From: Streptomyces sp. APSN-46.1
GTDB taxonomy: Bacteria; Actinomycetota; Actinomycetes; Streptomycetales; Streptomycetaceae
Assembly: GCF_022815725.1 (NCBI RefSeq)
Contig: NZ_JALGRF010000001.1
Coordinates: forward strand, 496,001-560,000
Direction: 5' to 3'
Length of the DNA: 64,000 nucleotides
The position numbers and the translations under genes are program-made. Of the stretch, positions 57,753 to 60,099 are shown in pieces. Each line of letters starts with the position of its first letter. Positions within the stretch are counted from its first letter, which is position 1. The notes below the pieces were generated by a model that saw nothing but the letters and a program-made list of their open reading frames with translations, was not told where the DNA came from and searched no databases.

Positions 57753-58036
57753 TCACGGGCGGAGCCAAAGTCGGATCGAGGCGACGGTGACGGTGCCGTG
57801 GAAGATGTAGCCGCGCTTGTCGAACCTCGTGGCCACGGCCCGAGAATTCTTCAACGCGTTGATCGTCCGCTCGACTTCGTTCCTCCGCTTGTAGATCGTT
57901 TTGTCGAAGCCTGCGGGTCGGCCGCCCCTGCTGCCCCTTCGCTGGCGGTTGGCCCGCTGGTTCCTCGGTTCGGGGATCGTGTGCTTGATCTGGCGCCGCC
58001 GCAGGTAGCGGCGGTTGCGGCGGGAGGAGTACGCCT
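57753..58036 (-). pseudogene. IS5-family transposase, C-terminal part, split by IS110
   Basis: On the minus strand the frame reads AYSSRRNRRYLRRRQIKHTI, PEPRNQRANRQRRGSRGGRP, then GFDKTIYKRRNEVERTINAL and RFDKRGYIFHGTVTVASIRL, ending at TGA 57753-57755. This is the C-terminal third of an IS5-family transposase, with the YKRRNEVERTIN block carrying the catalytic Glu. The adjoining upstream codons (VLADK) are found on the other side of the IS110 element at 59741 onward. Confidence 0.85.
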
Positions 58037-58059
58037 AATGGGAAGCGAACGTCAGCGGT

Positions 58060-58410
58060 AGCTGCCGTTCTGGGGGCGCGAGCCGAGCCTTTGAATACGC
58101 CCGGGCCTGAGAGCCCTGTTGACAAGACGAGGCTGGCTCGCGCCCAGCAGTCTGGGCATGAGTGTTCGGAATCGGGTGCGGTTCTGTCTGTATGGGCCTC
58201 GTAGCGGTCCTGTTGCTGCGGGCTGGTCCATCTGCGGACGCCGGGCGGTTTGCTTTTCGTAGTCCGAGCCGGTTGTGCGGATCACCTCTCAGCTCTGCCT
58301 TGAGCTTCCAGCTCTGACGCGGACCGAGGGCCGTACGACTCGCTGGGGTTGCGAACGGCTGGTGGGATGACGTGCCTTGAGCACTTCCATTAGGGAGCAC
58401 GCGCACCCTG
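58060..58410 (+). ncRNA. bridge RNA of the IS110 element (candidate)
   Basis: In the 5' non-coding end, GGGCGCGAGCCGAGCC (58074-58089) pairs with GGCTGGCTCGCGCCC (58131-58145). The loop between holds TACGCC (58096-58101), identical to the left target half TACGC plus the first core base, and TGACAAG (58120-58126), the complement of core CT plus right target TGTCA. Further on, GTGGGATG (58362-58369) equals the element's right end just before the core, and CCATTAG (58387-58393) complements core CT plus left end AATGG. These are the four guides expected of the target- and donor-binding loops. Exact RNA ends are not visible. Confidence 0.82.
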
Positions 58411-58455
58411 CACAGGCTCTGGCCTGGGAAAAGAGTCGCGACGAAGGAGGAGCAG

Positions 58456-59718
58456 GTGGAGATCACAGGGTTACCGACGCCAGTGTTCTGTGGCGTGGAC
58501 TGGGCCGAAGACCACCACGACATTGCACTGGTCGATGCCGGCGGAAAGCAACTCTCCAAGGTGCGGATCAGCGACGATGCTGCAGGGTTTGCCCAGCTCA
58601 TGGCTCTGTTGGCTGAGCATGGCGATAGCGAGGACGCCCCGATTCCGGTGGCGATCGAGACGTCACGCGGACTGCTTGTTGCCTGCCTGCGGGCCACCGG
58701 TCGGCCAGTCTTCGCGATCAATCCGCTGGCAGTCGCCCGATACCGGGACCGCCACTCCGTGGCACGCAAGAAGTCAGACGCCGTTGATGCCGCGGCCCTG
58801 GCCAACATCCTGCGGACCGATATGGCCGCCCATCGGCCGCTGCCTGCCGACTCCGAGCTCGTGCAGGCCATCGCCGTGCTCGCCCGGGCTCAACAAGACG
58901 CCGTCTGGGCCCGTTGCCAGGCCCACAACAAGCTTCGTTCCCAGCTCAGAGAGTTCTACCCGGCGATCATCGACGCCTTCGCCCCGCACAAGCACGGTCT
59001 GTGTTCAAGGGAAGCCCGCACCATCCTGGCCTCAGTACCGACCCCGACCATGGCTGCGAAGCTGACACGGCGGCGCCTGCAGTCGCTGCTCAAGCAGGCC
59101 GGCCGGGTCCGCGGCATCCAGGCCGAAGCCGAAAGGCTCCACGAGGTTTTCAAACGCGACTACCTCCACCAGCTCCCGCAGGTCGAGGCGGCTCTCGGGC
59201 ATCAGACGTCCGCTCTGCTCAGGCAGCTGAACACCGCCTGCGACAACGCCGACCAGCTCGAAGAAGCTGTCACGCAGGCCTTCGAAGAGCATCCGGATGC
59301 ACCGGTCATCCGCAGCTTTCCGGGTCTAGCCTCACTGACCGGCGCCCGGGTCCTGGCGGAGATCGGCGATGACCGGGCCCGATTTGCCAACGCCGGATCT
59401 TTGAAGGCCTACGCGGGAAGCGCTCCGGTCACCAGGGCCAGCGGCAAGAGCTGCATGGTCATGAGCCGGAAGGTCAAAAACCAGCGACTGGCTGCCGTCG
59501 GCTACGTCTGGGCCTTCGTCTCTCTCACCCGGTCACCAGGTGCCAGAGCCCACTACGACCGCCGACGAGCAGCTGGGGACCGTCACGTCGCGGCACAGCG
59601 GAACCTCTTCAATCGCTTCATGGGCATGCTATTCCACTGCCTCCAGAACGGTCACACCTACGACGAAGCAATCGCCTTCCCACAGCCTTCAGCCGGCCTT
59701 GCCGCAGCGGCAGCTTGA
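58456..59718 (+). CDS. IS110-family recombinase
   Basis: A 420-residue IS110-type DEDD recombinase. The RuvC-like N-terminal domain has FCGVDWAEDHHDIALVDAGG (first Asp), IPVAIETSRGLLVACL (Glu) and ARKKSDAVDAAALANILRTD (Asp pair). A coiled central region (RRLQSLLKQAGRVRGIQAEA) leads to the C-terminal Tnp domain with IRSFPGLASLTGARVLAEIG, AGSLKAYAGSAPVTRASGKS (catalytic-Ser region) and RNLFNRFMGMLFHCLQNG. GTG 58456 has GGAGGAG upstream. The frame is intact, so the element is probably active. Confidence 0.94.
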   Translation: MEITGLPTPVFCGVDWAEDHHDIALVDAGGKQLSKVRISDDAAGFAQLMALLAEHGDSEDAPIPVAIETSRGLLVACLRATGRPVFAINPLAVARYRDRHSVARKKSDAVDAAALANILRTDMAAHRPLPADSELVQAIAVLARAQQDAVWARCQAHNKLRSQLREFYPAIIDAFAPHKHGLCSREARTILASVPTPTMAAKLTRRRLQSLLKQAGRVRGIQAEAERLHEVFKRDYLHQLPQVEAALGHQTSALLRQLNTACDNADQLEEAVTQAFEEHPDAPVIRSFPGLASLTGARVLAEIGDDRARFANAGSLKAYAGSAPVTRASGKSCMVMSRKVKNQRLAAVGYVWAFVSLTRSPGARAHYDRRRAAGDRHVAAQRNLFNRFMGMLFHCLQNGHTYDEAIAFPQPSAGLAAAAA

Positions 59719-59740
59719 CGCTTATCCGCGTGGGATGTCT

Positions 59741-59850
59741 TGTCAGCCAGGACCATGTCCGGCCTGGTGCGGGGACGTCCACGGCGGCGGGGCACGCGCA
59801 GACGGGCCATCACGTTCGTGAAGGCGGGTGCGTCACCGGCCTGTTCTGAC
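59741..59850 (-). pseudogene. IS5-family transposase, middle part, split by IS110
   Basis: Minus-strand frame QAGDAPAFTNVMARLRVPRR, then RGRPRTRPDMVLADK, breaking exactly at the IS110 border. It continues into the C-terminal part at 58036-57753. Upstream of QAGDAPAF the family sequence is already lost (about 59850), so the IS5 copy was dead before IS110 arrived. Confidence 0.82.
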
Positions 59851-60099
59851 CTGGGACGATGCCGGGCGGTTGGAGTGTAGCGGGGCGCTAGCCGGTCAGC
59901 GGCGGTCTCTTCGAGGCTGCCCCTCGATCGTACGACAGCGTCGCTGGTCGTGGCAGCGACGTGGCAGCGACGGGGCAGCCTCCTCACGTGATCACCAGCA
60001 TGCTGCCGAGCAGTAAGGCCTGGAACTGGACGACCTCTTCGTGCTTCTCCTGCCCGGGGGCCAGAACACTCGCCCGACCCCCCAAGCTTCCGCCGCCGG
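59851..60099. other. non-coding stretch between IS5 remnant and the PLP lyase gene
   Basis: About 250 bases containing the direct repeat GTGGCAGCGACG (59950-59973, two adjoining imperfect copies). No gene is supported. Confidence 0.4.

What the first reader, a model, noticed from the sequence alone, without database searches (positions are those of the whole stretch)
58037..59740. IS110 element with a readable bridge RNA: all four guides match its own ends and its natural target
The IS5 reading frame split by the element gives the original target, GTACGC-CT-TGTCAG, with no base lost or gained. Within the 419-base 5' non-coding end I find: TACGCC (58096-58101), equal to left target plus first core base; TGACAAG (58120-58126), complement of core plus right target; GTGGGATG (58362-58369), equal to the element's right end before the core; CCATTAG (58387-58393), complement of core plus the left end. 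The first two lie in a loop closed by a roughly 15-bp stem. IS110-family recombinases (IS621 is the known model) use such a bridge RNA with a CT core. This gives a Streptomyces bridge system with donor and target guides deduced from one genomic copy. The two loops are far apart, implying a longer RNA than the IS621 one.
Basis: partly seen in the sequence, partly recalled or inferred. Interest (0 to 1): 0.93.

Follow-up and report, generated by a model that had tools for sequence, protein, structure and literature searches.

The report
Jumping-gene guide RNA aimed at transposons
A bacterial jumping gene carries the DNA for a predicted guide RNA whose guide stretches match the gene's own ends and its landing site inside another jumping gene, and in three relatives' genomes near-identical copies of one element carry at least two such landing guides and sit at two different sites, each matched by a different guide.

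Summary
The element is an IS110-group insertion sequence (recombinase 58456-59718) with a CT core; its 419-base 5' end encodes a predicted bridge RNA with target guides at 58096-58101 and 58120-58126 and donor guides at 58362-58369 and 58387-58393. 0 of 2000 shuffles reach either match. Over 79 relative/site pairs, 65 match their own site at 10 of 12 bases or better, against 2.3% of swapped pairs; donor stems covary. The landing site is a DKAY-coding stretch of an IS5-type transposase gene; uninterrupted alleles exist.

Following the remark that the loops lie far apart led to something not found in the papers searched: relatives carry two or three tandem target loops before one donor loop. In three genomes, copies differing at no more than one base sit at two different sites, each matched at 13-14 of 14 by a different loop. 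A guide-blind test finds two or more loops in 24 of 59 long 5' ends (null 5 of 590). The window element shows one target loop. No RNA was measured.

The parts
57753..58034 (-). C-terminal part of the interrupted IS5-type DDE transposase gene (left flank; stop codon at 57753-57755)
   Evidence: Joined frame reads VLADK/AYSSRRNRRYLR across the insertion point; Pfam DDE_Tnp_1 E=2.1e-8; uninterrupted alleles
59739..59870 (-). Upstream part of the same IS5-type transposase gene (right flank; start codon not determined, end coordinate approximate)
58035..58036 (.). Left copy of the CT core
   Evidence: sequence
59739..59740 (.). Right copy of the CT core
   Evidence: sequence
58037..59738 (+). IS110-group element between the cores
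   Evidence: Ends agree with donor guides and with relatives; empty site
58074..58146 (+). Predicted target-binding loop: outer stem within 58074-58093 and 58127-58146, inner hairpin 58103-58106 with 58113-58116
   Evidence: 17 outer and 4 inner pairs, -42.5 kcal/mol with guides unpaired; the only strict target loop in this 5' end
58094..58101 (+). Left target guide (AATACGCC; TACGCC matches target plus first core base)
58120..58126 (+). Right target guide (TGACAAG, complement of CT-TGTCA)
58147..58255 (+). Unassigned stretch; relative L142 (95% identical recombinase) has a 5' end 93 bases shorter and still sits at an IS5 site
   Evidence: L142 NCR 328 against 421
58256..58336 (+). Conserved middle stretch between target and donor loops, no guide recognised; likely structured
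   Evidence: DNA matches of relatives of about 70% identity begin at 58256-58258; a lax finder reports a hairpin near this place in many of the printed relatives, but not in the window's own 5' end
58346..58408 (+). Predicted donor-binding loop: outer stem 58346-58353 with 58402-58408, inner hairpin 58372-58375 with 58381-58384
   Evidence: 27 sequences: 92.6% of 297 cells paired, 8 of 11 pairs with changes on both sides
58362..58369 (+). Left donor guide (GTGGGATG, equal to right end 59730-59737)
58387..58393 (+). Right donor guide (CCATTAG, complement of CTAATGG 58035-58041)
58456..59718 (+). IS110 recombinase, 420 aa, GTG start
   Evidence: Pfam DEDD_Tnp_IS110 8e-35 and Transposase_20 1.8e-12
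59715..59720 (+). -35-like TTGACG, overlaps the recombinase stop codon
   Evidence: 17 bases from TCTAAT in the circle junction
58035..58039 (+). CTAAT: with T59738 forms the -10-like TCTAAT only when the element is a circle
   Evidence: a -35-like hexamer of at least 4 of 6 at 17-18 bases in 76 of 76 distinct junctions (8.7% of shuffles); TCTAAT itself in 72 of 76

Best explanation
The window holds an IS110-group insertion sequence whose 5' non-coding end contains guide stretches matching its insertion site and its own two ends, set in predicted stem-loops, and it likely works as a bridge RNA that directs the element's recombinase into IS5-type transposase genes. Proposed cycle (inferred from IS621 and ISEc21): the recombinase excises the element as a circle; the joined ends make a promoter-like site (TTGACG-17-TCTAAT) that would transcribe an RNA of up to about 400 nt through the target loop, a conserved middle stretch and the donor loop; one recombinase dimer would hold the target loop on GTACGC-CT-TGTC and another the donor loop on the RE-CT-LE junction, and strands would be exchanged at CT. 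Shown by sequence: ends, guides, covariation of guides with sites, junction promoter-like site, empty sites. Predicted: stems. Within this clade the target loop is a repeatable module: relatives carry two or three in tandem before one donor loop, and near-identical copies in one genome lie at sites matching different loops. The window element itself has one recognisable target loop.
For: Pfam domains of the recombinase. Guides present, 0 of 2000 shuffles. Own-site matches: 65 of 79 distinct 5'-end/site pairs score 10 of 12 or better (core left out) against 2.3% of 5606 swapped pairs; at 11 or better 62% against 0.6%. Donor guides change together with element ends (left ends CTAATGG, CTAATAG, CTAATCC, CTAATTC, CTAATGAC with the complementary right donor guide; right ends GTGGGATG, ATCGGATG, ATGGGGTG, ATGAGATG, TCGGAGGT with the same left donor guide). 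Donor-loop covariation: 32 cells changed on both sides against 9.6 in shuffles, 0 of 500 as high (27 of 41 available sequences). Target-loop outer stem of 12-17 pairs in 39 of 41 loops. -35-like hexamer at 17-18 bases in 76 of 76 junctions against 8.7% of shuffles. Empty alleles. Tandem loops: L006/L147 (same genome, 1 difference in 1708 bp), L040/L041 (same genome, 1 in 1846) and L243/L244/L148 (same genome, 0 in 1696), each set at two kinds of site with a different loop fitting (14 and 14; 13 and 14; 13, 14 and 14 of 14), the next-best place scoring at most 10.5.
Against: No RNA, circle or transposition was measured. 14 of 79 pairs score under 10 of 12 (L009, L077, L130, L132, L133, L162, L199, L050, L060, L125, L121, L053, L186, L066). 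In genome G101, which has six copies of a multi-loop element, one copy with both ends fits a loop (L241, 13 of 14), two sit at a site that no loop explains (L239, L242, 9.5 of 14), and three lack an end that I could place. Element ends were located by their fit to the donor guides and to CTAA, so donor covariation and the -10-like site are partly built in; the -35-like hexamer, the empty sites and the target guides are not. One of five covariation measures, further pair types, does not exceed shuffles (13 against 11.7, 117 of 500), and pair 12/76 is unpaired in 13 of 27. Two target loops folded poorly (L059 6, L049 0 outer pairs). 66 loci failed the end-finding rule, 18 of the 25 printed for want of a left end. 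No Rfam family matched.
Confidence: 0.93

Rival explanations
1. The guide matches are chance words in a GC-rich 5' end, and the site preference comes from the protein alone.
For: Each word is only 6-8 bases long.
Against: 0 of 2000 shuffles; covariation with sites across relatives; near-identical elements at different sites, each matching a different loop.
Confidence: 0.02
2. The target loop is cut out as a short seekRNA that guides insertion on its own, and the donor loop acts separately; there is no single long bridge RNA. Tandem loops would then be an array of separate guides.
For: ISEc21's abundant RNA is a 74-nt target piece (PMC11187229 section 12); separate target and donor loops support IS621 recombination in vitro (PMC11208158 passages); the loops here are far apart.
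Against: Donor guides are present and covary, and the junction promoter-like site lies upstream of all loops. It does not conflict with the guide assignments.
Confidence: 0.35
3. In multi-loop relatives only one loop is active; the others are relics, and copies at other sites were guided in trans by other elements or moved passively.
For: Some loops have no known site, and two G101 copies sit where no loop fits; IS110 relatives are common in these genomes (207 of 295 with a match); trans action of NCR RNA is published for ISEc21.
Against: In three genomes the fitting loop lies in the element itself and fits 13-14 of 14, while the next-best place in the same 5' end fits at most 10.5; the loops concerned keep strong predicted stems.
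Confidence: 0.12

Closest known systems
IS621 bridge RNA system (Durrant 2024, PMC11208160; Hiraizumi 2024, PMC11208158)
   Same: Recombinase domains, CT core, 5'-end location, loop order, guide polarity, internal loop with inner stem-loop, expression predicted from the circle (sections and passages read)
   Different: IS621 target loop is at nt 34-98 and donor loop at 110-177; here about 235 nt lie between the guides, with a conserved middle stretch; relatives carry two or three target loops. A leading 5' stem-loop as in IS621 was not looked for.
ISEc21 seekRNA (Siddiquee 2024, PMC11187229)
   Same: Upstream NCR, promoter made at the circle junction, target inside another transposase gene at the second D of a DDE motif (section 12)
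   Different: ISEc21 aims at IS3-family genes, and one pair of target guides is described; tested sites of this clade lie in IS5-type, IS110 and Mutator-type transposase genes, and some members carry several guide pairs
TIGR arrays (PMC12045711)
   Same: Tandem units with paired guides, one per DNA strand; the paper proposes kinship with IS110 RNAs
   Different: That paper describes IS110 bridge RNAs as a single two-stem unit, in contrast to arrays (passage); relatives here have arrays of target loops. Different proteins.
IS1111 group
   Same: DEDD recombinase with NCR-coded guide RNA
   Different: NCR usually downstream of the gene and order of target matches reversed (abstract); here it is upstream

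Membership tests
IS110 group of IS110-family insertion sequences | DEDD plus Transposase_20 recombinase | tested here: met
   Pfam 8e-35 and 1.8e-12; single catalytic residues not checked
IS110 group of IS110-family insertion sequences | Long non-coding left end upstream of the gene, short right end | tested here: met
   419 against 20 bases
IS110 group of IS110-family insertion sequences | Insertion without target duplication beyond the core | tested here: met
   Gapless empty alleles L208, L210, L211
Bridge RNA system | Target loop with LTG for the bottom and RTG for the top strand | tested here: met
Bridge RNA system | Donor loop with LDG and RDG matching the RE-core-LE junction | tested here: met
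Bridge RNA system | Conserved RNA structure with compensatory changes | tested here: met
   Donor loop, (27 of 41 sequences; four of five measures above all 500 shuffles). Target loops: predicted folds only, 39 of 41
Bridge RNA system | RNA is transcribed, bound by the recombinase and needed for insertion | not testable with these tools
   Only the promoter-like junction was seen
IS621-like compact bridge RNA (one target loop directly before the donor loop) | Single target loop next to the donor loop | tested here: not met
   Window: one target loop but about 235 nt away. Relatives: two or three target loops
IS1111 group | Guide RNA region downstream of the gene | tested here: not met
   20 bases between stop codon and core; guides upstream

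The most novel reading that the evidence does not exclude
A clade of actinobacterial IS110 elements carries guide arrays: two or three interchangeable target-binding loops in tandem before one donor-binding loop, so that one element can insert at several unrelated sites, mostly conserved stretches of rival transposase genes and in one case the donor loop of another IS110 element's own bridge RNA.
Probability: 0.85. Interest if true: 0.86.

Novelty: new variant of a known kind. Interest (0 to 1): 0.75.

Why it matters
Natural guide arrays in a recombinase system would show that target loops are modules that can be added, lost and used one at a time, would suggest multiplexed bridge editing from one RNA, and would supply the IS110 counterpart to TIGR arrays, against which published work sets IS110 as a single unit. 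The clade also shows RNA-guided elements aimed, in four places of the recombinase tree (two of them the two-site pairs L006/L147 and L040/L041), at the same conserved stretch of IS5-type transposases, a target that is common in the genus (joined flanks matched in 132 of 150 genomes) and presumably dispensable to the host.

Tried and rejected
RNAalifold on a MAFFT alignment of 31 of 41 target loops gave no pairs: outer stems vary in length and MAFFT put them out of register; I used constrained folds per loop instead. A lax loop finder gave 1.6 loops per shuffled 5' end (3.7 per real one) and was dropped as proof in favour of the strict one; the strict one finds no loop in 13 of 105 real 5' ends. 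Choosing the target gene by longest frame misled in GC-rich DNA; third-position GC was used instead, and still missed the DKAY frame in some (L039, L043, L044, L047). Rfam: no match. Distant relatives of about 45% identity (Humibacillus, Nocardia, Smaragdicoccus, Mycobacterium) share stretches of about 1.5 kb and were not pursued. I looked for a second target loop in the window element and found none. Rows dropped before counts: one search left out 22 named rows with doubtful ends; searches use only elements with both ends located by rule (95 of 126 elements; 79 distinct pairs); one search failed on 66 loci, of which 25 are printed (18 without a left end, 6 lacking the N-terminal part, 1 too short); one search used 27 of 41 donor loops, picked by eye, many of those left out being of the GGATTAG/GAATTAG kind; searches tested 20 site peptides of my choice.

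Full report
What is there. The element lies between two CT dinucleotides (58035-58036 and 59739-59740), interrupts an IS5-type transposase gene on the minus strand, and codes for a 420-aa recombinase with DEDD_Tnp_IS110 and Transposase_20 domains. Another IS110 gene, 67% identical in DNA, lies elsewhere in the same genome.

The paired target match scores 13 of 14 and the paired donor match 14 of 14; none of 2000 dinucleotide shuffles of the 5' end reaches either. The reading frame across the joined flanks gives VLADK/AYSSR and a DDE_Tnp_1 match (E=2.1e-8): the target GTACGC-CT-TGTC is the complement of codons for D-K-A-Y. That this aspartate is catalytic is recalled knowledge of DDE transposases, not from a call. 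Uninterrupted alleles cross the junction without a gap in L208, L210 and L211 (84.7-95% identical over 140-176 bases); L209 aligns with gaps just right of the junction.

Relatives. I collected relatives by DNA search of 295 and 392 genomes of the genus, a protein-pattern scan of named genomes (79 loci) and plasmids, and located ends by rule in 126 loci, 66 failing; these give 105 distinct 5' ends. Left ends CTAATGG, CTAATAG, CTAATCC, CTAATTC and CTAATGAC go with the complementary right donor guide, and five kinds of right end go with an equal left donor guide. Because ends were found by this fit (and by CTAA), I lean on checks outside it. In the circle junction RE-CT-LE a -35-like hexamer scoring at least 4 of 6 to TTGACA lies 17-18 bases before the -10-like site in 76 of 76 distinct junctions (8.7% of shuffles; 69 of the 70 printed are TTGAC plus any base; the -10-like hexamer is TCTAAT in 72 of 76). 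Near-identical copies in one genome share this stretch and differ outside it.

Target guides were not used to place ends. In 79 distinct pairs of 5' end and site, 65 match their own site at 10 of 12 bases or better with the core left out, against 2.3% of 5606 swapped pairs; 62% against 0.6% at 11 or better. An earlier count over 95 elements with repeats found a loop for 78 at 11.5 of 14 or better. The 14 pairs that fall short are listed under evidence against; some carry one common guide with three mismatches of 14 (L130, L132, L133), and L009 and the G101 copies L239 and L242 are unexplained.

Structure. With guides held unpaired, 39 of 41 target loops fold into an outer stem of 12-17 pairs; exceptions L059 (6) and L049 (0). 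For the donor loop, a structure written by hand on 27 of 41 sequences has 92.6% of 297 cells paired, 8 of 11 pairs with changes on both sides, 32 such cells against 9.6 in shuffles, 0 of 500 as high; the count of further pair types is not above shuffles (117 of 500); sliding by one to three columns drops pairing to 18-63%.

Tandem target loops. Looking into why the loops lie so far apart, I found that elements of one type match their sites at different places of the 5' end because they hold more than one target loop. Three genomes give the clearest case. G244: L006 and L147 differ at 1 of 1708 bases; L006 sits at CGAGTACGC-CT-TGTCC (loop 2, 14 of 14; next best 8.5) and L147 at AGGCCCACC-CT-CTTTCC (loop 1, 14 of 14; next best 9.5). 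Trebonia kvetii: L040 and L041 differ at 1 of 1846 bases with an identical 544-base 5' end; sites CTGGTACCC-CT-TGTCC (loop at 31, 13 of 14; next best 10.5) and CGACATCAC-CT-TCGAC (loop at 233, 14 of 14; next best 9.5); no third full copy in that genome. G058: three copies identical over 1696 bases; two at AGGCCCACC-CT-CTTTCC (loop 1, 14 of 14; next best 10), one at CTTCACCCC-CT-TGACC (loop 2, 13 of 14; next best 10.5). A fourth genome is mixed: G101 has six copies; L241 fits its first loop (13 of 14), L239 and L242 fit none (9.5), the other three lack a placeable end. Further, L033, L144 and L077 carry three loops; L033's own site fits its middle loop (13.5) while its other two fit the sites of L007 and L144 (14 each); L169 and L031 each carry loops fitting the sites of L048 and L016 (14 each). 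Over distinct 5' ends, hits of 13 or better to other elements' sites number 143 against about 6 for base-shuffled sites (many come from kindred elements with shared loops). A guide-blind finder (hairpin with GA, AG-ended right guide, outer stem) gives 1.15 loops per real and 0.07 per shuffled 5' end; two or more in 24 of 59 ends of 400 bases or longer (null 5 of 590) and 2 of 46 shorter ones; 25 of 29 spacings are 71-126 bases. It misses known loops (L006's second; no loop at all in 13 of 105), so this is a low count. The window element shows one. Its nearest relatives outside the IS5-aimed clade in the tree, L033 and L144, show three, so gain or loss of loops in the window's ancestry is possible but undecided.

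What the targets are. Of 20 site peptides that I chose (19 from the 63 distinct sites, plus L029), 13 match transposase families (12 above Pfam's cut-off: DDE_Tnp_1, DDE_Tnp_4, DUF4096, Transposase_20, Transposase_mut, DEDD_Tnp_IS110; L035 below it) and 7 match nothing. The IS5 DKAY-type site, labelled by its bases, is used by 19 rows in the tree (duplicates included), and starred branches force at least four changes of that label against the multi-loop rows; two of the four are the two-site pairs. L144 lies inside what reads as the donor loop of another IS110 element: the reverse complement of its flanks, GGCTACTGAG/GTGGCGGACC, nearly equals L002's donor loop over a longer stretch, and the frame downstream is an IS110 recombinase start (DEDD_Tnp_IS110 8.8e-9).

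Mechanism. Published structures hold the target and donor loops in separate recombinase dimers, probably from two RNA molecules, and separate loop molecules support recombination in vitro (PMC11208158 passages). Tandem target loops therefore need no new chemistry: any one loop-dimer could meet a donor-loop dimer. Whether the RNA stays whole or is cut into seekRNA-like pieces (PMC11187229 section 12) is open.

Known or new. Bridge RNAs are known in IS110-family elements at large (predicted in 85.7% of IS110s; PMC11208160 section 12), so the window element as such is a new member. A transposase-gene target has one precedent that I read (ISEc21). For tandem target loops I searched the open-access library with the terms, and read sections or passages, not whole texts, of four main papers and passages of a meeting report; what I saw does not describe them, and the TIGR-Tas paper calls the IS110 RNA a single two-stem unit. 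Most subscription papers and bioRxiv preprints are not held in that library, and supplements were not readable, so prior notice elsewhere cannot be excluded.

Noticed in passing
window 58147-58255: About 110 unassigned bases between the target loop and the middle stretch. Close relatives carry different sequence there, and L142 has a 5' end 93 bases shorter yet sits at an IS5 site.
   Followed up: partly
L046 left end; L010 left end: Partial left-end repeats: a second CTAATGGG 32 bases (L046) or 53 bases (L010) inside the first, as if an element had entered its own left end and the rest was lost.
   Followed up: no
L239 and L242 (genome G101): Two copies of a multi-loop element at GCCCACGAT-CT-GCTTCGC, a site that none of its loops explains (best 9.5 of 14).
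   Followed up: partly
L245 (genome G187): Copy about 250 bases shorter than its kin in G058 (1442 against 1696) but with both ends and a loop-2 match (13 of 14); looks like an internal deletion, perhaps moved in trans.
   Followed up: no
L144, both flanks of the element: IS110 element sitting in what reads as the donor loop of another IS110 element's bridge RNA region, at a site its own last target loop matches 14 of 14.
   Followed up: partly
L013 (genome G246): Left-end fragment matching only 58024-58513 of the window, with target and donor loop remnants whose right donor guide no longer fits its end.
   Followed up: no
L075/L076 and L083/L085: Distant relatives (about 45% aa identity) keep CCTAATGGG and GGGATGTCTAG-type (GGGATATCTAGG in L075/L076) ends; two copies share only about 1.5 kb.
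   Followed up: no
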